Source of the DNA: Desulfobacteraceae bacterium
Lineage (GTDB): Bacteria; Desulfobacterota; Desulfobacteria; Desulfobacterales; ETH-SRB1
Direction of reading: 5' to 3'
Length of the DNA stretch: 32,068 bases
Assembly (NCBI GenBank): GCA_028571455.1
Contig: JAPVVG010000173.1
Span: 1-32,068, forward strand
Both the position numbers and the translations under genes were made by a program. Below, piece after piece: positions 16,884 to 31,915 of the stretch. Position 1 is the first letter of the stretch. Every line of letters starts with the position of its first letter. Under the pieces are notes generated by a model. It searched no databases and was not told the DNA's origin. It saw nothing but the letters and a program-made list of their open reading frames with translations.

Positions 16884-18074
16884 TCATCGTTCATGCATCC
16901 ATACGCCAGGAATAACGCTCTTGCAAAACTTGCATTTATTTCCAACAAGATTATAAATAGGAATTAAATACCCTTTTCTTTCAACCAATAACTTTCCGCA
17001 ATTATGGCAATAGGTATTGTTGCCTTCGTGGCCTGGCACATTACCCACATATACATAATGGATTCCCTCCTGCATGGCCAATTCACGGAAGCGAGTCAGG
17101 GTAGATATCGGAGTTGGCGCCAGCCTGTCTAATTTATATCTGGGGAAAAATCGTAAAAAATGCAACGGATAATCAGGGCCAAGATTTTTGAGGATCCATT
17201 CGCACATCCTTTTAGCCATGTCAGCATCATCTACATAGCCGGGGACCACTAAGTTTGTCACCTCAAAATGAACCCCCTGTTCATGCAGGGTCATAAAGGT
17301 ATCTAATACCGGTTGCAGCCTGCCGCCATTTAATTTTCTGTAAACCACATCGCTGTACGCTTTCAGGTTGACATTGGCAGCATCCAGAACTTTGCACAGC
17401 TCCAGCAGCGGCTTTTGGTTAATGTAGCCGTTTGAAATCCACAGATTATACAGCCCATTTCCACGGGCCAGACGGGCAATGTCGATCATGTATTCAAAAA
17501 AGGTGGTTGGCTCGGAATATGTATATGCTATGGATTTGGCCCCGGCGCGCTTTGCCTCAATTACAACCTCAGGCGGGAAAAGCTCAATATGGCGCACCTG
17601 CCAGGGTTTTACCTGGGAAATCTCCCAGTTTTGACAGTTCAAACAGCGGAAATTGCACCCTGCGGCAGCAAGGGAAAATGCAAGTGTTTTTGGTTTAAAA
17701 TGGAAAAGAGGTTTTTTTTCTATTGGGTCGACATGGATGCTGCAGGGGTTGCCGTAGGCCATGCTGTATAATGTTCCGTCAATATTAACCTTACTGCGGC
17801 AGACGCTTAAATCACCCGGCGCCAGAACGCATCTGTTGGGGCAAATGCCGCATACAACCTTGTTTTCTTTTAACTTCTTATAAAAAAATCCTTCATGAGA
17901 CCATTTCCATAGTTTTGCGGGCGCTCCTCCTTTAAAAATCTTTCCGCGGATATCAACAGATCCGGATGCCTCGCTATCTGTTCCTGTAAGAGGCCAAAAG
18001 GAACGAAAAGGCATAGCAGTTGAAAGAATGGCTACGCTACAATATAGAAATTTTCGCCTACTTATTTTTTTCAT
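16884..18074 (-). CDS. amrS: AmmeMemoRadiSam-system radical SAM enzyme (AmrS-type)
   Basis: Radical SAM enzyme of the three-part AmmeMemoRadiSam system. The cluster motif is CNFRCLNC, with Cys140, Cys144 and Cys147. An extra N-terminal cysteine set (Cys75, Cys78, Cys82, Cys92) and a C-terminal YCHNC...CKFC pair probably hold further metal. The N-terminus SRRKFLYCSVAILSTA looks like a Tat signal or lipobox-type leader, which is odd because radical SAM chemistry normally occurs in the cytoplasm. The start overlaps the end of the spermidine-synthase-like gene by 17 nt. Family membership is sure; the reaction is not known from the sequence. Confidence 0.9.
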   Translation of the reverse strand: MKKISRRKFLYCSVAILSTAMPFRSFWPLTGTDSEASGSVDIRGKIFKGGAPAKLWKWSHEGFFYKKLKENKVVCGICPNRCVLAPGDLSVCRSKVNIDGTLYSMAYGNPCSIHVDPIEKKPLFHFKPKTLAFSLAAAGCNFRCLNCQNWEISQVKPWQVRHIELFPPEVVIEAKRAGAKSIAYTYSEPTTFFEYMIDIARLARGNGLYNLWISNGYINQKPLLELCKVLDAANVNLKAYSDVVYRKLNGGRLQPVLDTFMTLHEQGVHFEVTNLVVPGYVDDADMAKRMCEWILKNLGPDYPLHFLRFFPRYKLDRLAPTPISTLTRFRELAMQEGIHYVYVGNVPGHEGNNTYCHNCGKLLVERKGYLIPIYNLVGNKCKFCKSVIPGVWMHER

Positions 18075-20220
18075 GTCTTGTCGCCATAATAGTTAAGCTT
18101 GTCAGTTTCAGGCCGATTAATCCTGCCGTGGCCCATACAATGCCAAGATATGGAATAAGCGCCACGCTGGTGAACAGGGTGCCGAACGCAGCGCCTATAA
18201 GATCAGCGGAAAAGGCTCGTGTCACCACACGATTATCACCACCCCTTAAGCGAAGCGCAACCGGAAATTGAAAACCGCACATCAAAGAAATCACAAATCC
18301 AAACAAAAGAAATGAAATAACGGGCAACCGATCTCCGCCATACTTCATGGCCAGGATAAAAAAACCCAAAAGGATAATCAGCAGGCTGTCTGTAATTATT
18401 AGCATCTGTTTCCCACGGCTACGCAGTTTTTCACCAAACCAGGCGCCGGGCAACAGGCCGGCTAAAAAAACGGTTATGATCAGGCCTATCTGAAAATAAA
18501 TATAACCGAAAAAAATCTGAAAAGCAAAAATAACCAGGATTTCGCTGCCCATGGTCATAAAGCCGGTTGAAAACAGAACAAACTCCTCTCGCGCAATACG
18601 TACAAGATAGATGATAAGCAACACAGTTAGACCGGCAATGAATCGATTCGGGGATGTGGAGAATTTGGCAAACCACTGTAAAAACATCAGTCGCATCAAC
18701 TGGGGGGATTCGTCAATGTTTTTAGGGGCGACAGGATCGAGCAGATTGTTTAACCCTGCTATTCTTTCATTTGTCAGATTGCCATAATAAAAGCCGCTGA
18801 TGTAACTGGTTGAGATGCCTTTTTCAGCAAGACATGCCGGAATATCAAGATTTATTGGATTATCACTGCACAGGAAAAATATCCTTTCTCCGGGCAGCAG
18901 CAAAACATGTTTAAAGTAATCGGACACCGTATTATAAAGAGAAGAAATTTTCTGACGCTGGGGTTCGGCAAGGTAGCTGTCAAATCCCTGCACTGAAAAA
19001 CTTAATATTCCTGAGCCTGTAAGATGTTGCTTTGCCACAGCAAAAAAGCGGTCTGTAAAAAACCGGTTTATTTGAAAGGTTTCAGGTTCAGGCAGATTGA
19101 CTATTATAGCATCGTAGATTTCATCAGATTTTGTTAGATATGCCCTGGCATCTTGATTAATAACGTGTAAACCCGGAATATCCTTTATCAGGCCGAATCT
19201 AAACAAAGCAGAGCTAACCTCTGGATCAAGCTCAACATAATCTATGCGTGCAGGCAGGTATTTTTGCAATTCCTCCAACATCCCGCCTTGAGCCGAAATT
19301 ATCAGAATTTTTTGTGGATTGTCCAATTGTGACAAAGGATAATGAATCGTTTCTTCCGCCATAGTCAGGTTCTGGCTGCTGAACACGGGTGTGCCGTCCA
19401 TAAACAAGGTGAACTGCTCCTTATCTTTATAGACGGCTATGCGGCCGTATCTGGACTCGTGATAATATATTGGTTCGCCTTTGGAGGTGGCAAGTGAGGC
19501 CGGCTCCATAAAAACACCGGCCAGAAGAATTGTAAGAGCCAGCCCTGTGCCAATGAAAGCGGCTGGATGATGCCGTCGAATGGATATAAATAGAAAACAG
19601 GCTGCCGCCAACAGCGGCAGGTTGGACAGAAAAACCGCTTGCAGGGGGGTTACAAGATAAACCAGTATAAATGAAAACAGGGCGCCGCCCGCCACATCAC
19701 CGATATTGTCTGTCATATATATGAACGCCCCGGGATAATCCGGCTTTTCAAGCCTGAGCACAAAGAGACTATATGGAAGGACAAAGCCAAGCAGCAATCC
19801 GTAAGGGGCAATTGTAATAAAGGTATATGCGAGAGTGGGGTAAAATCCGACCGAACTGCCGTGAATAAAAAAATAATCACGCAGCCCGCGAATGGCCATG
19901 ATTTGTAAAGCCGGAAGACAGGCCAGGCAAAAGGAAAGCCAGCCAAGCCGGTTGGCTGTGGCTCGCCAAAAGCCTTTAATTGCCAGGTGAGCCAGAAGAG
20001 TGCCGATCCCGCCGATAATAAGCCAGTTGAAAAGAATCAGGGCGATAACAAACTCGTTTCCCTGGAATTGAGCCAGAAATTCGCGGATGATCAATAGTTG
20101 AGTCACTATAGAAGAAACGCCTGTGGCGATGACTACCAGAGTTATGGCTCGTTCACTTTTTCTCTTCAAAATATTGGACCTGGTAAGTCGATATTTTAAG
20201 CCGGGTGTTTTCCCATGCAT
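18058..20220 (-). CDS. Membrane-bound spermidine-synthase-like protein (polytopic fusion)
   Basis: A 720-aa protein with many hydrophobic helices in the N-terminal 240 residues, a soluble Rossmann methyltransferase/spermidine-synthase-like centre, and another set of helices from about residue 520. The centre shows ILIISAQGGMLEEL (about 303) and DYVELDPEVSSAL. GQ/GGG-type motifs of true spermidine synthases are only partly kept, and the acidic catalytic residues are uncertain. It overlaps the Memo-AMMECR1 gene by 68 nt; a TTG at 20169 would shorten the overlap. It sits inside an AmmeMemoRadiSam locus, so an aminopropyl-like or methyl transfer step linked to that system is a reasonable guess. 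Confidence 0.8.
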   Translation of the reverse strand: MHGKTPGLKYRLTRSNILKRKSERAITLVVIATGVSSIVTQLLIIREFLAQFQGNEFVIALILFNWLIIGGIGTLLAHLAIKGFWRATANRLGWLSFCLACLPALQIMAIRGLRDYFFIHGSSVGFYPTLAYTFITIAPYGLLLGFVLPYSLFVLRLEKPDYPGAFIYMTDNIGDVAGGALFSFILVYLVTPLQAVFLSNLPLLAAACFLFISIRRHHPAAFIGTGLALTILLAGVFMEPASLATSKGEPIYYHESRYGRIAVYKDKEQFTLFMDGTPVFSSQNLTMAEETIHYPLSQLDNPQKILIISAQGGMLEELQKYLPARIDYVELDPEVSSALFRFGLIKDIPGLHVINQDARAYLTKSDEIYDAIIVNLPEPETFQINRFFTDRFFAVAKQHLTGSGILSFSVQGFDSYLAEPQRQKISSLYNTVSDYFKHVLLLPGERIFFLCSDNPINLDIPACLAEKGISTSYISGFYYGNLTNERIAGLNNLLDPVAPKNIDESPQLMRLMFLQWFAKFSTSPNRFIAGLTVLLIIYLVRIAREEFVLFSTGFMTMGSEILVIFAFQIFFGYIYFQIGLIITVFLAGLLPGAWFGEKLRSRGKQMLIITDSLLIILLGFFILAMKYGGDRLPVISFLLFGFVISLMCGFQFPVALRLRGGDNRVVTRAFSADLIGAAFGTLFTSVALIPYLGIVWATAGLIGLKLTSLTIMATRHEKNK

Positions 20221-21649
20221 TGGCTGAAAGGCCGGCCTTTACGCACAAATGGGACAGAAAGTTTTCCGGCCGGGGCAACTGTTCCCAGACCTGGGGTAAA
20301 AATGTGGCACTGGCCCGCCCTTTTTGAAGAATAACTCCGTCAACATTGACTCTCAGCTTGGAGATCAAATCTACGCCGTTGGTGTATTCGAGAGGCTGGG
20401 GATTAGTCAGGATGCTGATTTCTATGTCCACATCTTCTATTTCTTCAACAGTTAAAGGAGAAAAACGAGGGTCATGGAATGCAGCATTGACGGCATTGCG
20501 CTTTACCCCGTCAAGAATCGATTCCTTTGCTGCCAGGCTTCCAATGCAACCACGCAAATTACCGGCAATCTTAAGGGTTACAAAGGTGCCGCGGCGGACC
20601 TCAAGCGCGTCATCTTTAAGGGCCGCCGCTACCAAATCCGATCCTTTGCCGGAAATTTTTAATCCCAGTCTTTCCATAATGGTTTGCCTGGCCAGTTTAA
20701 TTAGAGCCTGTCCAAGTTGTGGATTGATTTGCTGATGATTATGATGTTTTTGCATAGATGAATCTCCATAAAAGGCGATTGCCGCATAACCGACAACCTG
20801 TGAACGTCCTCCAGCAGTGTCCCCGCTGTTTGAATAATGAAGAAGAACCGGTCCCCAGCCATATTTTCCGGCCATTTCAAGCGCAATTAGAATCGGTATT
20901 ATGCCGCATGCGCGATTGCTGCTTTTCAACAGCTTATCAGATTCCAGCTTTAAAATCATATTAATTGTTTTTTTGTCTCTTTCCACAGCTTCCGAATATG
21001 GAAGAAAATGAGACAGATCAGAACTGACAATTAGCAAAGTATTTTTGTCGAGCAAGGGCTCTATGGCCGCCGCAAGTTGCCTGGCATTACCCCTGCCCAT
21101 GACAATCGGTATAAACTCGAATTTATTCAAATAGCGCTGAAGAAACGGCAGTATAACCTCCAATGAATGCTCAACCCTGTCAGAGGCTGGAATAGATTGA
21201 AACAGGTCTGAACTTGCGCGCAATTTGGCTGCATCCTTATTCAGACTGACAAGGCCAAGCGGGGTTTCATAAGCATCTACATCGCTGATTGCGCAGTTAT
21301 TAAAACCGACCCTGTGATCCGGTCCCATTAAAATAACTTTGTCAAACTGATTTTCTCTTAATACCAGCGAAGCATGAGCTGCCGTAAGCCCGGAATAAAT
21401 ATACCCTGCATGAGGCAGTATCAGGGCCTTAAGTTGCTTATGAGGAGGAATTTGGACACGGGTCTGTTTTGCCTGAAAAGTTAAGCTGTCAATAGTCTGC
21501 TCCAATTCAGACCGTGAAGCAGGATAGAAACGGCCCGCCCATACAGCCTCTCGGATACCTGCAGCACAAACGGTTTCGGCTGGCTGTATAGATACAAAAC
21601 AGACAGCCAAAAGAATTGATAAGATGAGACCTTTGCAAAGTTGTTTCAT
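20153..21649 (-). CDS. AmmeMemoRadiSam fusion: Memo (AmrB) plus AMMECR1 (AmrA), exported
   Basis: Two domains in one 498-aa chain. After an N-terminal signal-peptide-like segment (LILSILLAVCFVSI, then ETVCAAG), residues about 33-296 form the Memo domain with LPHAGYIYSG (His80), GPDHRVGF (His112), RVEHSLEV (His161), SSDLSHF (His214) and Cys248. These are the expected metal-site residues of Memo-like dioxygenase folds. Residues about 310-490 form the AMMECR1 domain with the signature LRGCIG (365-370). RBS AAGGA precedes the ATG. It is the first gene of a three-gene locus with the spermidine-synthase-like and radical SAM genes. The exported form is unusual; function unknown. Confidence 0.9.
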   Translation of the reverse strand: MKQLCKGLILSILLAVCFVSIQPAETVCAAGIREAVWAGRFYPASRSELEQTIDSLTFQAKQTRVQIPPHKQLKALILPHAGYIYSGLTAAHASLVLRENQFDKVILMGPDHRVGFNNCAISDVDAYETPLGLVSLNKDAAKLRASSDLFQSIPASDRVEHSLEVILPFLQRYLNKFEFIPIVMGRGNARQLAAAIEPLLDKNTLLIVSSDLSHFLPYSEAVERDKKTINMILKLESDKLLKSSNRACGIIPILIALEMAGKYGWGPVLLHYSNSGDTAGGRSQVVGYAAIAFYGDSSMQKHHNHQQINPQLGQALIKLARQTIMERLGLKISGKGSDLVAAALKDDALEVRRGTFVTLKIAGNLRGCIGSLAAKESILDGVKRNAVNAAFHDPRFSPLTVEEIEDVDIEISILTNPQPLEYTNGVDLISKLRVNVDGVILQKGRASATFLPQVWEQLPRPENFLSHLCVKAGLSANAWENTRLKISTYQVQYFEEKK

Positions 21650-22664: not shown

Positions 22665-22760
22665 AATAAATATCTGATACAATTTAGGATAAATTTCAAA
22701 TGGTTAGCAATAAAATGTCGCTGTAGCATTAAAAAATGAACAAAAAGCTCACTCGTTTGA

Positions 22761-22793
22761 AGTCCCCCGCAGCAAGTTACGGGGTATCAAAGG
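22761..22793. repeat. Hairpin repeat copy A flanking hicB
   Basis: Contains CCCCCGCAGCAAGTTACGGGG followed by TATCAAAGG. The reverse complement resembles the unit at 23055-23087, so the two copies face each other across the hicB-like gene. Confidence 0.75.
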
Positions 22794-22850
22794 ATAACAT
22801 ATTTTGTCATTCCGTGCTTGACACGGAATCCAGAAAAACTGGAGAGAGCC

Positions 22851-23096
22851 GTGTTTGCAACATATACCGCAAAGTATACAAAGATTACTACCGGTTATAT
22901 GGGCCAATTAGTTGAATGGCCAGAGATAGTTACTGAGGGCAGGGATATTGAGGATTGCCGAGATATGCTCAGAGATGCTCTCAACGAAATGATTTTGGCC
23001 TATCAACATCAAGGAAAAGAAATTCCCTTGGGGCGTTGTTCAATGCTTTTTAAGATACCCCGCTGCTTGCGGCGGGGTAGTTCATTTGAATCTTAA
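22851..23096 (+). CDS. HicB-family antitoxin-like protein
   Basis: HicB proteins are partial RNase H-fold antitoxins of HicA mRNA interferases. The start FATYTAKYTKITTGYMGQLVEWPEIVTEG and the DALNEMILAYQHQGKEIP segment fit the HicB fold. I chose the GTG at 22851 because GGAGAG precedes it; the in-frame extension upstream comes from a dispersed repeat. No hicA is adjacent, so it is an orphan or remnant. The last dozen residues (CLRRGSSFES) are encoded by hairpin copy B, so the native end has been replaced and the DNA-binding domain of larger HicBs is absent. It ends 30 nt before mod. Confidence 0.8.
   Translation: MFATYTAKYTKITTGYMGQLVEWPEIVTEGRDIEDCRDMLRDALNEMILAYQHQGKEIPLGRCSMLFKIPRCLRRGSSFES
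23055..23087. repeat. Hairpin repeat copy B, overlapping the end of hicB
   Basis: TACCCCGCTGCTTGCGGCGG continues to GGTA; the arms TACCCCGC and GCGGGGTA pair around CTGCTTG-rich sequence. It is the inverted counterpart of 22761-22793 and supplies the last hicB codons. Confidence 0.8.
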
Positions 23097-23126: not shown

Positions 23127-24995
23127 ATGGATGGCAAATCGCTGGATCTAAAACAGGAAAAAATTGAAAGGCTTAAAGAACTACTGCCTGAGGTTTTTAC
23201 AGAAGAAAAAATCGACTGGGAAAAGCTGAAAGCAGCGCTGGGCGAGGACGTTGAATTCAAAAACGAGCGTTATGTTCTGAACTGGGCCGGAAAATCCGAT
23301 GCGTTTAAAGTATTACAGGCCCCGACAACAGCGACACTGGTTCCTGACAGAAATGAGTCAACTGATTTTGATAACACGGGAAATGTTTTCATTGAAGGCG
23401 AAAATCTGGAAGTTCTGAAAGTGCTTCAAAAGTCATATTTCAACAAGATAAAAATGATCTATATAGATCCGCCTTATAATACAGGCAACGACAATTTTAT
23501 CTATCCTGACAAGTTCTCTGAAACAAAAGAAGAATATCTTGAAAGAATCGGGGATAAGGATGAATTGGGATACATGACCAGAGAAGGTCTGTTCAGGAAA
23601 AACAGCAAAGACAGCGGCCATTATCATTCCAACTGGCTTTCAATGATGTATCCGAGACTGTTTCTGGCAAGGAATCTGTTGAAAGATGACGGGGTTATTT
23701 TTGTAAGTATTGATGATAATGAGGTTCATAATTTAAGATTGTTGATGAATGAGGTTTTTGGGGAGGAGAATTTTGTTGCGACTTTCATCTGGGAGAAACG
23801 AACAACGAGAGAAAATCGGCGTGTATTCTCCTTCAACCACGATTTCATCGTCTGTTATGCACGAATAAAGGAGCTTTTCGAGACAAGCAGAGGTTTGCTC
23901 CCTATGACAGAGGAAGGGCGAAAGAGATATAAGAATCCAGACAATGATCCACGGGGAGATTGGCAGTCTGTTTCTTTGAACGCTATGGCAGGACATGCAA
24001 CCCCAGCACAGTTCTATACAATTACCACACCTGGGGGAAGAAAACTCGACCCTCCTCCTGGGCGGTGCTGGTCAGTAACACAATCCGAACTTCAAAGACT
24101 CATCGCTGACAATCGCGTCTGGTTTGGGAAAGACGGTAACAACGTGCCTCGGCGAAAGGTGTTCCTTTCTGAAGTTGATGAAGGACTTACCCCGCATACT
24201 CTGTGGAAAGCTGCGGAAGTTGGAACGACAGACAATGCGAGCAAAGCATTACTCAATCTCTTCGGTGGTGAGTCTTTGTTCGAGACACCGAAGCCAATTG
24301 AATTGGTAAAGCGTATGACCGCTATTTCCACTCAGCATGATTGTGGTGACATCGTCCTCGACTTCTTCGCTGGCTCTGCCACCACCGCTCACGCGGTCCT
24401 CGACCTGAACAAACAAGACAACGGCACCCGCAAATTCATTATGGTCCAGCTTCCCGAAAAGTGCGACGAAAAATCCGAGGCTTTTAAAGCAGGTTACAAA
24501 ACCATTGCTGATATCGGCAAGGAACGTATCCGACGCGTTATAAAAAAGATAAAAGACAGCGAAAACGGTAAGCTCTCTTTTGAAAAAACAAAACAGGATT
24601 TGGAGTTCAAAGTATTTAAACTCCAAACCTCAAACTTCAAAATCTGGCGGGGAGACGGCATTGAAAACGGCAGGCAGCTTGAAAAACATTTGCAGCTTCA
24701 CCTTGATTCTATAAAAAAGGATGCCAGTGAAGAATACATGCTGTATGAACTGCTTATAAAGTCAGGCCGTGATCTGAATTCAAAAATTGAAAATACAGAT
24801 AATTATTACAGAATAAATGACGGAGAAATGGTTATTGCTATTTCAAAAATTGATGAAAAAATTGTGGACTCAATCCTTGAAGCCAAACCTCAGATATTTA
24901 TCACGCTTGACAAACTGTTTAAAAACAACGACCAGTTAAAAACCAATACGTTGCTGCAAATGAAGGATGCAGGCATTGAATTTAAGGTGGTGTAA
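23127..24995 (+). CDS. mod: Type III restriction-modification methyltransferase (Mod)
   Basis: Adenine-N6 DNA methyltransferase and specificity subunit of a type III system. Motif IV DPPY is at residues 114-117 and the SAM-binding motif I DFFAGSATT at 412-420. This is the beta-class order, with the target-recognition region between them. The C-terminus (LDKLFKNNDQLKTNTLLQM) is typical of Mod and probably contacts Res. The length is 622 aa. A RBS AAAAGGAA precedes the ATG. Codon use in about 23770-24480 (frequent CTC, TTC, GTC) differs from both flanks, suggesting cassette exchange. First gene of the mod-AAA-S8-res operon. Confidence 0.95.
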   Translation: MDGKSLDLKQEKIERLKELLPEVFTEEKIDWEKLKAALGEDVEFKNERYVLNWAGKSDAFKVLQAPTTATLVPDRNESTDFDNTGNVFIEGENLEVLKVLQKSYFNKIKMIYIDPPYNTGNDNFIYPDKFSETKEEYLERIGDKDELGYMTREGLFRKNSKDSGHYHSNWLSMMYPRLFLARNLLKDDGVIFVSIDDNEVHNLRLLMNEVFGEENFVATFIWEKRTTRENRRVFSFNHDFIVCYARIKELFETSRGLLPMTEEGRKRYKNPDNDPRGDWQSVSLNAMAGHATPAQFYTITTPGGRKLDPPPGRCWSVTQSELQRLIADNRVWFGKDGNNVPRRKVFLSEVDEGLTPHTLWKAAEVGTTDNASKALLNLFGGESLFETPKPIELVKRMTAISTQHDCGDIVLDFFAGSATTAHAVLDLNKQDNGTRKFIMVQLPEKCDEKSEAFKAGYKTIADIGKERIRRVIKKIKDSENGKLSFEKTKQDLEFKVFKLQTSNFKIWRGDGIENGRQLEKHLQLHLDSIKKDASEEYMLYELLIKSGRDLNSKIENTDNYYRINDGEMVIAISKIDEKIVDSILEAKPQIFITLDKLFKNNDQLKTNTLLQMKDAGIEFKVV

Positions 24996-24998
24996 ATT

Positions 24999-25979
24999 AT
25001 GGCAAGAGCAGATATACTTCTTAGTTTGGTACAGTCAGCCAATCGCAATGATATGGCCTCTTTTCGTAAATCTGTTGAAAGCTTAATTGCAGAAGAACGG
25101 GCTAAAAAACATAATATTCTTGCTGATAGGCTATCTACAGCCATTACTGAAAATGGAAATAAGAATAATACTGCCATTCGTTCCAATGGGCCAGCCAAGG
25201 ATTTGGTTTTCGAAATTGTACCTCAGAAGCAATTTGATGATTTAATAATTGAAGATCAATCCTTAAAAATATGTAAAGATTTAATAGAGGAACAACACAG
25301 AGCCGATTTACTCCGGTCTTATGGTCTTGAACCACGCAACAGAGTATTATTAACAGGTTCTCCTGGAAATGGTAAAACCAGTCTTGCGGAGGCCATCGCC
25401 ACGCACTTAATGTATCCTTTTTTTGTTATTCGTTACGAAAACTTAATCGGAAGCTATTTAGGGGAGACAGCGTCACGCCTCAAAAATGTGTTTAATTATA
25501 TAAGAACACGAAATTGTGTGCTTTTTTTCGATGAATTTGACACCATCGGAAAAGAAAGAGGCGACACCAAAGAAACAGGTGAAATAAAGCGTGTTGTAAG
25601 TTCTTTACTTCTCCAAATGGATAGGCTTCCAAGTTATGTGGTTGTTATTACTGCGAGTAATCACCCGGAGCTTCTCGACCGTGCCGTATGGCGCAGATTC
25701 CAATTAAGGTTAAACCTAGAAGTACCAGATAAGTCACAAATTGAACGTTTTATAAAAATGTTCACGAAAAAAACTGGTATCAGCATTGATTATAATATGA
25801 AACAACTTACTGAAATATTAAAAGGTCAAAGCTATTCTGATATAGAATCTTTTTGTACGGATGTTTTAAGACAAGCAATTTTGGATCATCAGCAGGATAA
25901 TACGAAGTCTATAGTTATTGAAAAACTAAAACAATGGCAACAAAGATTTATGACTGATAGCCGGAAAGAGGAAAAATAA
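24999..25979 (+). CDS. AAA+ ATPase partnered with a subtilase
   Basis: Cytoplasmic AAA+ ATPase of 326 aa. Walker A GSPGNGKTS is at 120-128 (Lys126). Walker B VLFFDEFD has Asp178 and Glu179. The pore-like loop GSYLGET and the Arg-finger region LDRAVWRRF (228-233) follow. The small N-terminal helical region (about 1-85) is unlike ClpX and may select partners. It starts 3 nt after the mod stop and ends 1 nt before the subtilase ATG, so the two are a unit. AAA-subtilase pairs recur in bacterial genomes; their placement inside a type III system is notable. It probably supplies unfolding or switch activity to the protease (inference). Confidence 0.9.
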   Translation: MARADILLSLVQSANRNDMASFRKSVESLIAEERAKKHNILADRLSTAITENGNKNNTAIRSNGPAKDLVFEIVPQKQFDDLIIEDQSLKICKDLIEEQHRADLLRSYGLEPRNRVLLTGSPGNGKTSLAEAIATHLMYPFFVIRYENLIGSYLGETASRLKNVFNYIRTRNCVLFFDEFDTIGKERGDTKETGEIKRVVSSLLLQMDRLPSYVVVITASNHPELLDRAVWRRFQLRLNLEVPDKSQIERFIKMFTKKTGISIDYNMKQLTEILKGQSYSDIESFCTDVLRQAILDHQQDNTKSIVIEKLKQWQQRFMTDSRKEEK

Positions 25980-25980
25980 T

Positions 25981-28737
25981 ATGCCAAGAAAACCTCTTTT
26001 AATGTTCCCAGCACCTTCTACCACTGATAGAGTAAAGAAAAAGCAGGGCTTTGGCTCTCCGTCATACCATTTCCCTGATTTTTCAAAACAAAAAGACCGA
26101 CTTACGCCACAATTTGAAACCATGCTACAGTCTTTTATTGTCGATTCAGCTGATGGACTTGAACCGGAATATGTATTGGTAATTGAGACCATTGGCCAGA
26201 TTGATGATTTTCAAAGGGCGGTTCGCGCTATTCCCGGCCTTGAATGGCTGGCAGAAATTGATGAAGAAGCCATTGAGCCGAATGAATATTTTTATCAAAT
26301 TTGTAAAATTGGTAAGTCTCTTTTTAATAAAAAAATCAAACCAATTAATAGAAAGCAATCATCACAACTATGGAATCTGCTTTTAGAAAATGCTTTTATA
26401 AATAGGGATGGTTATTTAACAGATAGAGATATTAATGAGTTTGAGGAACTTATACCAGATGAATTTTATGAATATAGTGAAAAAATAATAAAAATTATAA
26501 AAGATGAATCTATTGCAGGCCTTACACAGCCATTAAGCGGCAGGCTTTTCCTCAGCATGAGCAACAGGCAGGCCATAGATAACTTACTCAGTTTGTGGAA
26601 TCAGTGGGATGCTAGCGACAAAAAATTACCGAAGCCATATGGTAAATGGGCTGAAATATTTAAACAAATAAAGACAATAAGAAAATGGGATACGCCGGAT
26701 CGGTTAAGAGATACCGGTATTATTAATTACTGGAAAGATGAATTAGAATTAAAAAAAGGGACTTCATCAAAAATAACCTTTGAAATTGAACTGTGGTATA
26801 GAAATAACTCTGTCCAAAGAAAAGAAATTGAAAATAAAGTTCGTCGACTAATTTTAACGGAAAATGGGAGTATTATAACAGCTTGCGCAATAAAAGAGAT
26901 ACGATTTCACGCCATAAAAGCAGAATTACCACCGGAAAAAATTGAGAGAGTCCTTAAATTTGAATACACTAACGTGTTTACCAGTAACGATGTAATGTTT
27001 TTTCGGCCTGTTGGCCAATGCAGAACAGATGTACCAACCGATAGTGTAGAAAGAGATTTTGAATTCGGGAATACAGTTGGTTATCCAATTGCCGCCATAC
27101 TTGATGGTGTGCCTTTTGCTCGCCACAATCTTCTCGTAAACCGATTATTTTTGGAAGACCCTGATGATTTTGAAAGCAGCTACTCGGCAAATGCCAGAAG
27201 GCATGGCACTGCAATGGCTTCGCTTGTATGTCATGGGGAATTGGATGCACAGGAAGAACCACTTACTCGGCCGGTTTATTTCAGACCGATAATGAAACCT
27301 GACCCCGATGATTTTGTCAATAATCCACCATGTGAAATTATTCCAAAAGAATATTTCATGGAAGATCTGATTGAACGTTCAGTTCGCAGAATGTTCGAAG
27401 GGGATAGCAATGTGCCCGCAGTCGCACCAACAATAAAAGTAATCAATCTTTCAATTGCTGATTCATCAAAGATGTTCTTTAATCAATTAAGTTCTTGTGC
27501 AAAATTATTAGACTGGCTTTCCTATAAATATCAAGTTCTTTTTTGTGTCAGCGCAGGAAATATCAACACCGACATTGACCTCCAAAAGAGCATCAATGAA
27601 TTAAGGGCGCTCTCGAATGATGAGCTATCAACTCTTACGATGTTAAAAATCAATGAAGATATTCGTAACAGGAAAATGTTATCTCCTTCTGATTCCGTAA
27701 ACTCAATAACGTTAGGCTCTATTCATGCGGATAGAGCAACAGCAGATAATATCGGTAACAGATTTGACATTTTACCAAGCCAGGATCTACCTTCACCAAT
27801 TTCTGCTCATGGATTAGGTTATAAAAATTCCATAAAGCCGGAGTTGTACATATTTGGCGGAAGACAGTTATACGATGCAAAAGATAACAATCGTTACAGG
27901 GTGTCTGATTCAGGATTGGCGCCCGGACAAGGTGTAGCCACATCACCCTCAACAGGCGGTGAAATTAACAGATGCGTTTACACCAGAGGAACAAGCAATT
28001 CGACAGCCCTTGCGACACGATCTGTAGCTCAAATTTATGAGATGTTAAACTCATTAATATCTGAAAATAACCTTTTAATTGACGAAAGCAATATCGCCGT
28101 CATTCTAAAAACCTTACTGGTTCATGGTTCGTCTTGGACTGAGGGTCATACTATTTTAGAAAACATATTAAAAACCGATAATTCCAGACAACTTAAAAAG
28201 ACCATCGCCCGTTATCTGGGATTTGGCGTGCCAAATATTCACCGTGTTCTGGAGTGCACCTCTCAAAGAGCAACAGCTATCGGCTTTGGGAAAATAAAAA
28301 AGGATGATAAGCATGATTTCCGGTTTCCTTTACCACCATGTTTAAGTGGCATAAACGAAATGAGACGATTAACGATTACTCTGGCCTGGTTTAGCCCTAT
28401 TAACCCAGCAAACAGAAAATATAGAAAAGCAAATCTGTCTGTTGAACCTCCAAAGAATGATATAGGTGTTGATAGAATAAACGCAGATTGGCAACAAGTC
28501 AAAAATGGAACTGTGCAACACGAAGTTTTAGAGGGAAACAAAGTCGTTTCTTATCAGGATGATGATTTTTTAAAAATATCAGTGGTGTGTAGGGAAGATG
28601 CGGAAAGTCTTGATGAAGAAGTCCCTTATGGGCTTGCTGTGACATTAGAAACAGGTGAGCATATTGATTTGCCGATTTATGAAGAAATTGAGGCCAGAAT
28701 AAGCATTCCTGTACAAGTTGAGGAAAAAATTCAGTGA
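25981..28737 (+). CDS. Cytoplasmic S8 subtilase, AAA-associated, 918 aa
   Basis: Subtilisin-like serine protease with no signal peptide. The triad is Asp375 (AILDGVP), His408 (RRHGTAMA) and Ser672 (RGTSNSTALA), and the oxyanion Asn is Asn527 (VSAGN). The order D-H-S and spacing fit S8. A roughly 370-residue N-terminal region precedes the catalytic domain; it contains RLFLSMSNRQAIDNLLSLW, typical of AAA-partnered subtilases, and an extra helical stretch (about 105-170). A C-terminal domain (about 740-918) with MRRLTITLAWFSPINP looks like an all-beta module. It lies between the AAA gene and res, overlapping res by 4 nt (GTGA). Substrates unknown; a host, phage or Res target are all possible. 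Confidence 0.88.
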   Translation: MPRKPLLMFPAPSTTDRVKKKQGFGSPSYHFPDFSKQKDRLTPQFETMLQSFIVDSADGLEPEYVLVIETIGQIDDFQRAVRAIPGLEWLAEIDEEAIEPNEYFYQICKIGKSLFNKKIKPINRKQSSQLWNLLLENAFINRDGYLTDRDINEFEELIPDEFYEYSEKIIKIIKDESIAGLTQPLSGRLFLSMSNRQAIDNLLSLWNQWDASDKKLPKPYGKWAEIFKQIKTIRKWDTPDRLRDTGIINYWKDELELKKGTSSKITFEIELWYRNNSVQRKEIENKVRRLILTENGSIITACAIKEIRFHAIKAELPPEKIERVLKFEYTNVFTSNDVMFFRPVGQCRTDVPTDSVERDFEFGNTVGYPIAAILDGVPFARHNLLVNRLFLEDPDDFESSYSANARRHGTAMASLVCHGELDAQEEPLTRPVYFRPIMKPDPDDFVNNPPCEIIPKEYFMEDLIERSVRRMFEGDSNVPAVAPTIKVINLSIADSSKMFFNQLSSCAKLLDWLSYKYQVLFCVSAGNINTDIDLQKSINELRALSNDELSTLTMLKINEDIRNRKMLSPSDSVNSITLGSIHADRATADNIGNRFDILPSQDLPSPISAHGLGYKNSIKPELYIFGGRQLYDAKDNNRYRVSDSGLAPGQGVATSPSTGGEINRCVYTRGTSNSTALATRSVAQIYEMLNSLISENNLLIDESNIAVILKTLLVHGSSWTEGHTILENILKTDNSRQLKKTIARYLGFGVPNIHRVLECTSQRATAIGFGKIKKDDKHDFRFPLPPCLSGINEMRRLTITLAWFSPINPANRKYRKANLSVEPPKNDIGVDRINADWQQVKNGTVQHEVLEGNKVVSYQDDDFLKISVVCREDAESLDEEVPYGLAVTLETGEHIDLPIYEEIEARISIPVQVEEKIQ

Positions 28738-31367
28738 AACTTCATTTCGACCCCAACCACCAGTACCAGCTTGACGCTGTAAAGTCCATAATAGACATCT
28801 TTGAGGGCCAGCCTTTAAACCAGGGTGATTTTGGCTTTTCAATCTCTGAAAACGGCCAGCTTTTTAATGAAAATGGAGTCGGTAACAGGATCGTTCTTTC
28901 AGAAAAACAGATTCTGAGCAATCTGCAGGAAGTTCAGAAAAAAAACGGGTTCAAAAATATATCCGAAGAACTTGACGGAATGCATTTTTCCGTTGAGATG
29001 GAGACCGGCACAGGAAAAACTTATATCTATATCAGAACTATTTATGAGCTGAATAAAAAATACGGTTTTAAAAAATTTGTAATAGTAGTTCCAAGTATTG
29101 CCATCCGTGAGGGTGTGTTAAAAAATCTTGAGATTACTTTTGATCATTTTCAAAACCTGTATGACAGAATCCCTGTAAATTTTGATGTATATGATTCCAG
29201 AAAGGTTTCCGGTCTTAGAGGTTTTGCATCCGGCAATACGATTCAGATCCTTGTTATTAATATAGATTCATTTGCCAAGGATGAAAATGTTATCAACAGG
29301 CCGAATGACAAACTTACAGGCAAAAAACCTATTGAGTTCATACAAAGCGCCAGTCCAATTGTAATTGTTGACGAACCGCAAAACATGGAAACAGAAATCA
29401 GGAAAAAGGCTACTGAAAACCTGAACTATTCCTGCACTCTCCGTTATTCTGCCACTCACACCAATCAATATAATTTAGCTTACAGCTTGAACCCTGTAAA
29501 AGCATACGATCTTGGACTGGTTAAACAGATTGAAGTTGATTCCATAGTAACTGAAAATGATTTTAATGACGCTTTTATCAGGCTTGAAAAGGTATCTGCT
29601 ACAAAAACAAAAACATCCGCCAAAATTACAATCGATGTAAACCAAAAGGACGGTGTGGCAAGAAAAACTGTTACTGCAAAAGTAGGAGACGACTTGTACA
29701 AACTTTCCAAAAACAGGGAGATTTATAAACAAGGCTATATAATCAACGGCATAGATGTTGAATCGGGACATATTTCCCTGTCCAATGGCGAGGACCTTTT
29801 TGTAGGCGACTCTCAGGGCGGCATGACTGATGAATTAATGAAATTCCAGATTGAAAAAACTGTAAAGGAACATTTAATCAAGGAGAAGAAATATAAGGAT
29901 AAAGGGATTAAAGTTCTTTCTCTGTTCTTTATCGACAGAGTTGCAAACTACAGGCAGTATGATGAGGCCGGAAACCCGGCAAATGGGAAATTCGCAAAAT
30001 GGTTTGAAGAGTCTTTTAGGGATATCTGTTCTAGATCTGCATATAAGGGGCTGATACCTTTTCCTGTTGAGGAGATTCACAACGGTTATTTTTCACAGGA
30101 TAAAAAAGGAAAATTTAAGGATACTCAAAAAACCGCAAAAGCAAAAGCGGATATTGATACATTCAAATTGATAATGAAGGATAAGGAAAGACTGCTTAGT
30201 ACGGAAGAACCTTTAAGGTTTATTTTCAGCCATTCTGCTTTACGTGAAGGATGGGACAACCCGAATGTTTTTCAAATCTGCACATTGAATGAAACCAGAT
30301 CTGAATTAAAAAAAAGACAGGAAATCGGAAGAGGACTGAGGCTATCGGTTGATCAGTCCGGTTATAGAATTCAGGACCCGGTAATAAACAAGCTCACTGT
30401 TATTGCTAATGAAAGTTATGAAGACTTTGCAAAACAGCTTCAGAATGAGATAGAGGATGAGTGTGGTGTTTCATTTAAGGGGAGAATAAAAAACAGGAAA
30501 AAAAGAAAAGAGGTAAAATACCGCAAGGGTTTTGAGCTTGATGAAAATTTTAAAAGCCTCTGGGATAAAATAAAGCATCACACAAAATACAAAGTCATGT
30601 ATGAAACCGGAGAGCTTATTGAAAAAGCATCAAAGGCTCTCAGATACATGCCTGAAATAAAAAGGCCCGTTATAAAATCCACAAAAACATCTGTAAAATT
30701 TGATGAAGGCGGGATTAACGGTGATGTTGTTTCAAGCTATTCAACTCTCTGGGATAAGGCATTCCGGATTCCCGACATACTGGCCTATATACAAAGCAAA
30801 ATCGGCTTGACACGGTCAACCATCCTGAAAATCCTTATCGAATCCGACAGGCTTGATGATGTTATCATTAATCCGCAATTGTTTCTTGATAATGCAGTTT
30901 CGGAAATAAAAGAGGTTTTGAATGATTTGATAGTTGAAGGCATTAAGTATGAGAAAATAGGAAATGTTGAATATGAAATGCGGCTTTTTGAGGATTATGA
31001 AATACATGTTAATGATTTGACATTTATTATTTCCAAAAGAGAAAAAACAATTTACAGCAACATGATGCCGCTTGACTCCGGTGTTGAATATCAGTTTGCA
31101 AAGGATTGTGAAACACGTGAGGATATAGATTTTTACTTCAAGCTTCCGTACTGGTTCAAAATTAAAACACCTATAGGAAATTATAATCCCGACTGGGCTT
31201 TGATAAAGAAAAACGAGAAAACAGTCTATTTCGTGGCTGAAACCAAGTCTGCAAATCAGGAATTGAAAACAAGCGAAAAAAGAAAAATAAAATGCGGTAA
31301 GGCACATTTTGATGAATTTGAAGGCGTTGAATACAGGCAGATTGCAAAAGTGTCGGATTTGGATTAA
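28734..31367 (+). CDS. res: Type III restriction endonuclease subunit (Res)
   Basis: ATP-dependent translocase/nuclease of a type III system. Helicase motif I METGTGKTY is at residues 89-97 and the DEPQ Walker B box at 213-216, the form typical of type III Res. SATH follows, then the late helicase motif EIGRGLRLSVD. The C-terminal PD-(D/E)xK nuclease is intact: Asp820 in NPDWAL, then Glu836 and Lys838 in AETKS. The length is 877 aa. The start is GTG, overlapping the subtilase stop, which couples Res output to protease translation. The catalytic residues are all present, so the system should be able to cleave. Confidence 0.94.
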   Translation: MKLHFDPNHQYQLDAVKSIIDIFEGQPLNQGDFGFSISENGQLFNENGVGNRIVLSEKQILSNLQEVQKKNGFKNISEELDGMHFSVEMETGTGKTYIYIRTIYELNKKYGFKKFVIVVPSIAIREGVLKNLEITFDHFQNLYDRIPVNFDVYDSRKVSGLRGFASGNTIQILVINIDSFAKDENVINRPNDKLTGKKPIEFIQSASPIVIVDEPQNMETEIRKKATENLNYSCTLRYSATHTNQYNLAYSLNPVKAYDLGLVKQIEVDSIVTENDFNDAFIRLEKVSATKTKTSAKITIDVNQKDGVARKTVTAKVGDDLYKLSKNREIYKQGYIINGIDVESGHISLSNGEDLFVGDSQGGMTDELMKFQIEKTVKEHLIKEKKYKDKGIKVLSLFFIDRVANYRQYDEAGNPANGKFAKWFEESFRDICSRSAYKGLIPFPVEEIHNGYFSQDKKGKFKDTQKTAKAKADIDTFKLIMKDKERLLSTEEPLRFIFSHSALREGWDNPNVFQICTLNETRSELKKRQEIGRGLRLSVDQSGYRIQDPVINKLTVIANESYEDFAKQLQNEIEDECGVSFKGRIKNRKKRKEVKYRKGFELDENFKSLWDKIKHHTKYKVMYETGELIEKASKALRYMPEIKRPVIKSTKTSVKFDEGGINGDVVSSYSTLWDKAFRIPDILAYIQSKIGLTRSTILKILIESDRLDDVIINPQLFLDNAVSEIKEVLNDLIVEGIKYEKIGNVEYEMRLFEDYEIHVNDLTFIISKREKTIYSNMMPLDSGVEYQFAKDCETREDIDFYFKLPYWFKIKTPIGNYNPDWALIKKNEKTVYFVAETKSANQELKTSEKRKIKCGKAHFDEFEGVEYRQIAKVSDLD

Positions 31368-31389: not shown

Positions 31390-31526
31390 TTGATGCACTC
31401 GTAAAAAGTCGTCACTCCAGTGAAAACCGGAGTCCAGAGCCTTCGTAAGTAGTTGAATAGACTGGAATCTGGCTTTCGCCGGAATGACGAAAAATGGTAC
31501 TTTTCGACTTTTTACGAGTTCAAAAC
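31390..31526. mobile_element. MITE-like element 2, same ends as element 1
   Basis: Left end TTGATGCACTCGTAAAAAGTC at 31390-31410 begins with one mismatch to element 1, and GACTTTTTACGAGTTCA (31506-31522) is its inverse. The internal sequence is unrelated to element 1 and is built on a GTCATTCCGGCGAAAGCC-type hairpin. Confidence 0.75.
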
Positions 31527-31528
31527 TA

Positions 31529-31591
31529 TGGTGTCAAAGCTTGAATTGTGAATTAAGGAAAGTTTAATTCACAATTCAAGCTTTGACACCA
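31529..31591. repeat. Perfect 28-bp inverted repeat with 7-nt loop
   Basis: Arms 31529-31556 and 31564-31591 pair without mismatch; the left arm begins TGGTGTCAAAGC and the loop is GGAAAGT. It is AT-rich, without a T-tract. It abuts the MITE-like element on one side and the truncated reverse transcriptase frame on the other. Confidence 0.95.
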
Positions 31592-31915
31592 GTTCCTTGG
31601 GTGATAAAGAAACAGACAGCACGGAAACGACTAAACCGTTTTCTGCGGATGTTGTGGAATTGGTGCAAGAAGAATCGGCATGAACCCATAGAAGAGCAGC
31701 ATGACATATTATGTAGCAAACTTCGAGGGTTTTACCAATACTTTGGGGTGCGGAGCAATTATAAGGCGTTGGAGGCAGCGTTCGAATATGCAGAAAAAGC
31801 ATGGCGTCGCTGGCTCGGACGACGCCACAGGGATGGCTATATAAGTTGCGAAAAGTTTAAGCGTATTCTTGAAAGAGCCCCTCTGCCGCTTCCCAAAATA
31901 GTCCATAATATTTGA
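31568..31915 (+). pseudogene. 5'-truncated group II intron reverse transcriptase/maturase
   Basis: The in-frame residues QTARKRLNRFLRMLWNWCKK, then EEQHDILCSKLRGFYQYFGV and PLPKIVHNI, are the X/maturase-side C-terminus of bacterial group II intron reverse transcriptases. Only about 110 residues remain of the usual 400-600. The frame is closed upstream by a TAA within the palindrome arm, and the fingers/palm and YADD part are gone. No domain V/VI hairpin was recognised downstream. Confidence 0.8.

What the first reader, a model, noticed from the sequence alone, without database searches (positions are those of the whole stretch)
23127..31367. An AAA+/subtilase pair nested between mod and res of a type III R-M operon
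The four genes share one strand, with gaps of 3 and 1 nt and a GTGA overlap, and all catalytic motifs are intact (Mod DPPY, AAA Walker A/B, S8 triad, Res helicase and PD-ExK). Type III systems normally have mod directly followed by res. Here a dedicated ATP-driven protease is co-translated between them. This is the best candidate for a composite defence system in the window.
Basis: partly seen in the sequence, partly recalled or inferred. Interest (0 to 1): 0.78.

Follow-up and report, generated by a model that had tools for sequence, protein, structure and literature searches.

The report
Protease-bearing type III restriction operon
A bacterial DNA-cutting defence operon carries, between its two standard genes, a known ATPase–protease defence pair whose protease has a piece resembling a part of the cutting enzyme, which suggests that the two defences physically work together.

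Summary
In detail: mod–AAA–S8–res on one strand, exact coordinates, motifs intact. The AAA/S8 pair is IetAS, a known anti-phage pair. Of 52 IetAS loci inspected, 16 are nested inside a methylation-based system (type III, type I, BREX type 3 or Hma).

The four genes are not one co-evolving unit. The mod–res junction is a cargo slot that also holds other defence genes or nothing; scars of mod and res ends flank moved copies; Res and IetS trees conflict.

Yet the cargo is specialised. IetS from two unrelated type III lineages forms one clade and shares a 62–72-residue insert, absent from 20 of 20 other IetS aligned. The insert matches a module that long type III Res proteins carry just after their motor domains (HHalign 97%, E 6e-11). 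In the five type III IetAS loci with readable Res, that Res lacks the module. A joint profile found one weak other hit in 84 genomes.

Best reading: a type III chassis with a docked, type III-adapted IetAS as a second, coupled defence layer. Coupling is inferred, not shown. New variant of a known kind; the Res-like module is the novel part.

The parts
23127..24995 (+). mod: type III DNA adenine methyltransferase (622 aa)
   Evidence: Pfam N6_N4_Mtase 2.7e-35; PADLOC MTase_III 693.9 bits; DPPY before the FxG motif (sequence; beta-class assignment recalled)
24960..24995 (+). 3' end of mod (about 36 nt) that recurs as an in-frame scar abutting ietA in L005, L006 and L004, and downstream of res in L003
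   Evidence: local alignments and sequences
24999..25979 (+). ietA: AAA+ ATPase of the IetAS pair (326 aa)
   Evidence: PADLOC IetA PDLC04232 488.8 bits; Pfam AAA 2.5e-31; NCBIfam IteA 232.9 bits, below its cut-off of 510
25981..28737 (+). ietS: S8 subtilase of the IetAS pair (918 aa); D375, H408, N527, S672 present
   Evidence: PADLOC IetS PDLC04233 1000.4 bits; Pfam Peptidase_S8 4.3e-13; conservation
26314..26514 (+). type III-specific insert of IetS (residues 112-178), similar to the post-RecA2 module of long type III Res proteins
   Evidence: present in 7 of 7 aligned type III-clade IetS, absent in 20 of 20 others; HHalign to the Res module 97.1%, E 5.7e-11; genome background
28734..31367 (+). 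res: type III restriction subunit (877 aa, GTG start), SF2 motor plus PD-ExK nuclease; lacks the ~80-aa module found in long Res (junction at residues 581/582, nt 30476/30477)
   Evidence: Pfam ResIII 2.3e-16 and RE_endonuc 9.5e-34; PADLOC REase_III 982.4 bits; EcoP15I Res 4zcf_C 3e-56; gap in the PADLOC profile at about 595-676; alignment

Best explanation
A type III R-M operon acts as a chassis with an exchangeable cargo slot between mod and res, here filled by a type III-adapted IetAS. Inferred working: Mod and Res sense and cut unmethylated incoming DNA. IetA, an AAA+ motor expected to be hexameric by homology, hands substrates to, or switches on, the subtilase IetS as a second layer. In the type III clade, IetS carries a Res-like module that lets it dock on the Mod/Res complex at the place where long Res proteins hold their own module, so protease action is tied to the state of the R-M complex (engaged on foreign DNA, or blocked by an anti-restriction protein). 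Shown: anatomy, IetAS family match, cargo exchange, clade-specific insert, its similarity to Res, absence of the module from the neighbouring Res. Inferred: docking, coupling, trigger and substrate.
For: Family matches. Recurrence of ietA-ietS between mod and res in two type III lineages. Those chassis are unrelated (WIN vs L046 Res 41 bits; one clade of IetAS-bearing Res rejected, AU 6e-6), yet their IetS form one clade: 100/99.7, and SH-aLRT 100 without the insert columns. Insert in 7 of 7 vs 0 of 20. Insert versus Res module: HHalign 97.1%, E 5.7e-11; T3a rows alone 96.6%, T3b rows alone 93.7%; 20 control windows of IetS at most 6.0%. HMM hits in both directions. In 84 genomes, 5 hits at E<=0.01: the window IetS, 3 at the module position of type III Res, and 1 weak unrelated (E 0.003). 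Module absent from Res of WIN, L003, L007 and not detected in Res of L046, L076. Cargo slot and scars.
Against: Short Res without IetAS (L124, L126, L127) also lack the module, so its loss from Res does not require IetS to supply it. Insert/Res identity is low (best 22 of 73 aligned residues, L003 vs L136). The insert HMM also hits a 105-codon ORF of viral contig L138 almost as well as Res (1.6e-4 against 7e-5), though the Res-module HMM does not (0.41). The joint profile finds nothing convincing in the PDB, not even EcoP15I Res. T3a and T3b are only about two independent cases. L005, a type III-clade copy with a split ietS, now lies behind type I M and S gene fragments, so the clade's tie to type III slots is not absolute. 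No structural support: AlphaFold2 models failed (mean pLDDT 48.6 and 35.0). IetAS also occurs alone, as at the 6 plasmid sites inspected, so it does not need R-M.
Confidence: 0.55

Rival explanations
1. Independent passenger: IetAS is a free-standing defence pair that sits in the operon only for shared expression and co-transfer; it has its own trigger, and the insert is incidental.
For: IetAS occurs without an R-M chassis in many loci, including the 6 plasmid sites inspected. The same slot holds unrelated cargo: Ppl-like ATPase plus Schlafen-type gene, PDC-S13, a type II nuclease and methylase. Embedding of further systems in R-M loci is published: TgvAB (PMC11411939, passages) and DarTG2 (PMC12255303, passages and one section). 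L005 lies behind type I gene fragments.
Against: The type III IetS clade sits in the mod-res slot of two unrelated chassis, and the 3 close relatives found outside a chassis carry mod and/or res scars. It has a private insert resembling Res, which a mere passenger would not need.
Confidence: 0.28
2. Restriction control: IetAS is a local protease that degrades Res (or free Mod/Res) to restrain self-restriction, as ClpXP does for type I HsdR (recalled), and phage defence is secondary.
For: Tight packing directly before res, and a Res-like module that could recognise Res partners.
Against: Stand-alone IetAS without any R-M neighbour, and a close type III relative that does without it (L127).
Confidence: 0.12
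3. One reading: a stable four-gene unit whose parts co-evolved as one system.
For: Same order in L003, and with extra genes in L004 and L007, and in a second type III lineage.
Against: Res of L004 groups with Res carrying other cargo (97/95), as does its Mod (93/99), while its IetS groups with WIN, L003 and L006 (100/98). AU p 0.032 for a WIN+L003+L004 Res clade, 0.055 (not a clear rejection) for all four, and 0.006 for an L004+L007 IetS clade; the groups were chosen after seeing the other tree.
Confidence: 0.04

Closest known systems
IetAS (PADLOC IetA/IetS; NCBIfam IteA/IteS)
   Same: Adjacent AAA+ ATPase and S8 peptidase; matches to PADLOC models PDLC04232 (488.8 bits) and PDLC04233 (1000.4 bits, two stretches)
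   Different: Far below the NCBIfam equivalog cut-offs (232.9 of 510; 80.5 of 900); nested in type III R-M; extra 62-72-aa insert in IetS
Type III R-M, EcoP15I kind (4zcf; PMC4490356, abstract and passages read)
   Same: Mod and Res families; Res matches 4zcf_C at 3e-56
   Different: mod and res separated by two genes; Res 877 aa, lacking the post-RecA2 module of long Res relatives
Systems embedded in R-M loci: TgvAB, DarTG2, PrrC (PMC11411939 and PMC12707154, passages; PMC12255303, passages and one section)
   Same: A second defence module inside a methylation-based operon; DarTG2 sits between hsdS and hsdR as IetAS does in L045, L056 and L092
   Different: Host is type III; cargo is an ATPase-protease pair; the cargo shares a protein module with the restriction-subunit family of its host type
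Phage defence candidates found by guilt-by-embedding (PDC; Payne 2024 preprint, not read, seen only as cited)
   Same: PDC-S13 and PDC-S02 occur in or beside the same slots
   Different: Whether that work lists IetAS or type III slots could not be checked; the preprint is not held

Membership tests
IetAS | Adjacent AAA+ gene and S8 peptidase gene matching PADLOC IetA and IetS models | tested here: met
   488.8 and 1000.4 bits
IetAS | NCBIfam equivalog cut-offs for IteA and IteS | tested here: not met
   232.9 of 510 and 80.5 of 900; so it is filed as a divergent relative, not as an equivalog of the named proteins
IetAS | Anti-phage activity needing both genes | not testable with these tools
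   needs phage challenge
Type III R-M | Mod: N6-adenine methyltransferase of the type III kind | tested here: met
Type III R-M | Res: SF2 motor plus PD-ExK nuclease | tested here: met
Type III R-M | mod directly followed by res | tested here: not met
   3,738 nt with two genes lie between them; plain order in relatives L127, L130, L135, L136. Order is customary, not defining of the enzyme
Type III R-M | Methylation of and cleavage at an asymmetric site | not testable with these tools
   needs methylome or cleavage assay
R-M guard (PrrC kind) | Effector gene nested in the R-M operon | tested here: met
R-M guard (PrrC kind) | Activation by inhibition of the R-M enzyme | not testable with these tools
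   needs an anti-restriction protein assay
R-M guard (PrrC kind) | Anticodon nuclease effector | tested here: not met
   the effector is a subtilase; it may work like a guard but is not a PrrC

The most novel reading that the evidence does not exclude
IetS has taken a module of the type III restriction subunit and uses it to sit on Mod (or Mod2Res), so that Mod's DNA recognition steers a protease: a type III system with proteolysis as a second, sequence-guided or inhibition-triggered output. The complementary pattern (module in IetS, missing from the neighbouring Res) would then be a transfer of a docking part from one subunit to another.
Probability: 0.25. Interest if true: 0.87.

Novelty: new variant of a known kind. 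Interest (0 to 1): 0.63.

Why it matters
Two of the papers seen call the mechanism of IetAS unknown (PMC9958689, passages; PMC11878078, passages). A clade whose protease carries a part resembling a type III restriction subunit gives a concrete, testable handle: what the module binds should reveal how this IetAS is recruited or triggered. The mod-res slot also shows how R-M operons accept and swap second-layer defences, with scars that record the swaps.

Tried and rejected
Rejected: the idea that the short Res is caused by IetAS; short Res also occurs with other cargo or none. Rejected: a strictly co-evolving unit. No sign of phage-borne spread of this clade: no IetS match in the phages collection or among viral contigs candidates with the window protein. 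The IetA alignment gave 2 viral-contig loci, with no IetS recognised in the stretches held; one of them, L139, ends just behind ietA.

Led nowhere: AlphaFold2 of IetA and IetS from 6 and 5 sequences (mean pLDDT 48.6 and 35.0), so no fold search was run. Pfam and PDB searches with the insert gave only a weak DEP hit (E 0.013, one of four insert pieces) and noise. Promoter- and terminator-like sites in the operon are at chance level (24 against 24.0 expected, 6 against 7.2), so they say nothing about internal promoters. One search returned the same hits as apart from the centre genome, so the window's phylum is taken to be that of L004. Literature searches returned no paper; in the listings of 35 and 103 I saw nothing on IetAS nesting.

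Not done: a control rate of nesting for another two-gene defence pair. The nesting counts have no background rate; they are lower bounds, because the neighbour reference set was small, and only some neighbours were checked against PADLOC.

Dropped before counts: L057 (no IetA or IetS found). IetS ORFs of 600 aa or less were left out of the IetS set, and 27 of the 47 longer ones went into the insert alignment. L132 and L135 were left out of the Res tree of the first two AU tests. L109, L125 and L128 (divergent, broken or partial Res) are not in the 2x2 module count.

Full report
What is there. The window holds four same-strand ORFs at exactly the stated places, with gaps of 3 and 1 nt and a 4-nt GTGA overlap. 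Pfam and PADLOC name them as a type III Mod, an AAA+ ATPase, an S8 peptidase and a type III Res with helicase and nuclease parts. Res matches the solved EcoP15I restriction subunit at 3e-56. Triad, oxyanion Asn and Walker residues are intact and conserved among relatives.

What the pair is. PADLOC identifies it as IetA (488.8 bits) and IetS (1000.4 bits). It falls far below the NCBIfam equivalog cut-offs for IteA and IteS, so it is a divergent relative of that known anti-phage pair. That IetAS was first tested for defence by Gao and co-workers in 2020 is recalled, not read here. Two papers call its mechanism unknown (PMC9958689, passages; PMC11878078, passages).

How widespread the nesting is. 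Searches with the IetS profile matched 36 of 395 genomes of the window's phylum, 31 of 294 in the phylum of L005, 12 of 198 in that of L007, 13 of 82 in that of L006 and 2 of 144 in that of L003; many of these matches are weak. I read the surroundings of 53 loci, mostly of the stronger matches; 52 had a recognisable IetA or IetS. By my reading, 16 of these 52 are flanked on both sides by same-strand genes of one methylation-based system: type III in WIN, L003, L004, L007, L046 and L076; BREX type 3 between pglXI and brxHI in L039, L040, L042 and L043; type I in L045, L049, L052, L056 and L092; Hma in L086. PADLOC confirmed one BREX locus (L043), one type I locus (L045) and parts of the Hma locus; the others rest on profiles built here, with weak HsdS matches (25-41 bits) in L049, L052, L056 and L092. 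Five more have such genes on one side (L044, L051, L053, L083, L084), and three carry only scars (L005, L006, L008). Of the 39 loci taken from genome draws (L038-L056, L074-L093), 12 are nested; L042/L043 and L049/L052 are near copies of each other. At the six plasmid loci inspected no R-M or BREX gene is annotated next to the pair; in L059, where ietS is broken, a restriction endonuclease gene lies 3.5 kb away on the other strand. I have no background rate for another gene pair, so these are counts, not a test.

The mod-res junction is a cargo slot. Res relatives at E<=1e-20 were found in 32 of 395 genomes. Of 14 Res contexts fetched, mod and res stand directly together in L127, L130, L135 and L136. 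L124 and L126 hold a Ppl-like ATPase plus a second gene (Schlafen-type in L124, the one scanned); L128 and L137 hold a PDC-S13 gene, with mod in pieces; L125 holds a type II nuclease and methylase between broken mod and res. L129 and L134 have res in pieces, L131 a short ORF in between, L132 res before mod, and L133 only a res fragment. The genomes with the closest Res relatives (G039, G108, G164, G250) are not among the IetS matches.

Scars of exchange. In L005 and L006, which have no mod or res, an in-frame remnant of the mod 3' end abuts ietA (28 of 33 and 32 of 40 nt like the window), and a few codons like the start of res follow ietS in L005, L006 and L008. The res-side remnants are much shorter and weaker than the mod-side ones, and the L008 contig begins inside ietS. 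L004 has a second mod 3' remnant (46 of 58 nt) directly before ietA although its whole mod ends about 1.4 kb upstream. L003 has, downstream of res, a mod 3' remnant (70 of 78 nt) followed by the start of the Ppl-like cargo gene of L124 (107 of 138 nt). L007 has a decayed res 5' copy (39 of 49 residues like its own Res) and a 171-codon ORF before res. So cargo is swapped at these junctions.

Chassis and cargo histories differ. In the Res tree L004 groups with the Ppl and type II carriers (97/95), away from WIN+L003; the Mod tree agrees (93/99). In the IetS tree L004 groups with WIN, L003 and L006 (100/98). Holding WIN+L003+L004 together in Res gives AU p 0.032; holding all four IetAS carriers gives 0.055, not a clear rejection; holding L004+L007 together in IetS gives 0.006. 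The groups were named after seeing the other tree, so the p-values are indicative.

But the cargo is specialised. IetS from two type III chassis lineages (T3a: WIN, L003, L004, L007, with the scarred L006; T3b: L046, L076) form one clade: 100/99.7 with 13 rows, and SH-aLRT 100 with 27 rows after dropping the insert columns. For IetA the same grouping has only 87. The two chassis are not close within type III: WIN Res scores 41 bits against L046 and L076 but 402-654 against L130-L132 and L134-L137, and one clade of all IetAS-bearing Res is rejected (AU 6e-6, in a tree with long branches). The simplest reading is that the pair moved between unrelated type III operons and landed in the same slot. 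One fact against strict fidelity: L005, of this clade by IetA, lies behind fragments of type I M and S genes, with ietS split in two ORFs.

The insert. The 7 type III-clade IetS in the alignment carry 62-72 extra residues at window residues 112-178; 20 of 20 others lack them, apart from 1, 3 and 11 stray residues in three rows. The first ietS fragment of L005 has it too. T3a and T3b inserts are alike (20 of 60 residues, WIN-L046).

The insert resembles a part of Res. An HMM of the insert picked out, among the ORFs at hand, the plain Res of L136 (residues 619-672, E 7e-5) and, nearly as well, a 105-codon ORF of viral contig L138 (1.6e-4). At that place 12 of 19 aligned type III Res proteins (969-1025 aa) have an ~80-aa module right after the motor domains; WIN, L003, L007 and three other short Res (872-877 aa) lack it, as does the divergent L109. 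HHalign between insert and module gives 97.1%, E 5.7e-11; T3a rows alone 96.6%, T3b rows alone 93.7%; 20 other IetS windows of equal length reach at most 6.0%. The reverse HMM, built from Res alone and run on 2,293 ORFs, hits IetS inserts (best 6.7e-6) and, apart from Res and IetS, nothing better than 0.0088; the L138 ORF scores 0.41 there. In 84 genomes a joint profile made 5 hits at E<=0.01: the window's IetS, three at the module position of type III Res, and one weak hit elsewhere (0.003). The joint profile contains Res rows, so Res hits are expected; what counts is the near absence of others. In EcoP15I the corresponding place is near the start of the helical spacer (RecA2 366-594, spacer 620-810; PMC4490356, passages), but the profile does not detect EcoP15I itself, so that mapping is by position only.

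Distribution of the module. Where IetS has it, the neighbouring Res lacks it in WIN, L003 and L007, and none is detected in Res of L046 and L076. Res of L004 is cut by the contig end; a fragment elsewhere in that genome has the same gap. So 5 of 5 type III loci with IetAS and readable Res lack the module, against 3 of 15 without IetAS (L124, L126, L127 lack it; 12 have it). For 5 of those 12 the context was read; for the other 7 absence of IetAS rests, where six of the genomes have no IetS match and G210 has one on another contig. Fisher p is 0.004, but the rows are related, so this is about two independent cases. Short Res without IetAS exists, so IetS is not needed to replace the module.

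Mechanism. Most likely the locus gives two defence layers: type III cleavage of unmethylated DNA, and an IetA-driven protease that in this clade is docked to the type III complex through the Res-like module. Docking, trigger and substrate are inferences. Rivals are an independent passenger, a protease that restrains Res, and a strict four-gene unit. Guard systems such as PrrC, nested in a type I locus and triggered by an anti-restriction protein, are the closest working analogy (PMC12707154, passages).

Known or new. Embedding of defence genes in R-M loci is published (PMC12255303, passages and one section; PMC11411939, passages; the Payne 2024 preprint only as cited). A survey of Pseudomonas islands counts both type III R-M (1542) and ietAS (797) among the systems of one hotspot; the passage seen does not say whether they are nested (PMC12629846, passages). 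A 2026 BREX survey has no match for subtilisin, subtilase or IetA in its main text (PMC12839542, passages). My searches showed no report of IetAS nested in type III R-M or of a Res-like module in IetS; this covers only the held open-access library, seen mostly as listings and passages.

Noticed in passing
window 31394-31591: Just downstream of res: an 18-nt inverted repeat with 93 nt between its arms (MITE-like) and a perfect 28-nt inverted repeat with a 7-nt loop.
   Followed up: no
window 31583-31912: Short ORF with a group II intron maturase-specific domain match below the Pfam cut-off (21.4 bits, cut-off 23); probably a remnant.
   Followed up: no
window 22818-23096: UPF0150-like small ORF (30.7 bits) directly upstream of mod, overlapping the second arm of an imperfect 31-nt inverted repeat (22758-22788 and 23054-23084).
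   Followed up: no
window 16884-21649: Memo-AMMECR1 fusion, spermidine-synthase-like gene and AmmeMemoRadiSam radical SAM gene in a row.
   Followed up: no
L124 3225-6994, L126 2967-6757: Other cargo of the same mod-res slot: 865-869-aa Ppl-like ATPase plus a 396-399-aa gene, in L124 with a Schlafen AlbA_2 match; it may be a defence pair of its own.
   Followed up: partly
L086: IetAS nested in an Hma locus between a TmtA-like gene and HmaB/HmaC.
   Followed up: partly
L039, L040, L042, L043: IetAS between pglXI and brxHI of BREX type 3; these IetA and IetS cluster together with L038.
   Followed up: partly
L138 9001-9951 and 18313-18630: Viral contig with an IetA-like gene (61% identity) and no IetS recognised, plus a 105-codon ORF weakly matching the insert profile (E 1.6e-4, 0.0053, 0.41 with the Res-only profile).
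   Followed up: no
L003: Record whose genome belongs to a phylum draw in which the listed genomes are nearly all about 1 Mb or less, although ietA, ietS and res are 86-97% identical to the window; mis-binning is possible.
   Followed up: no
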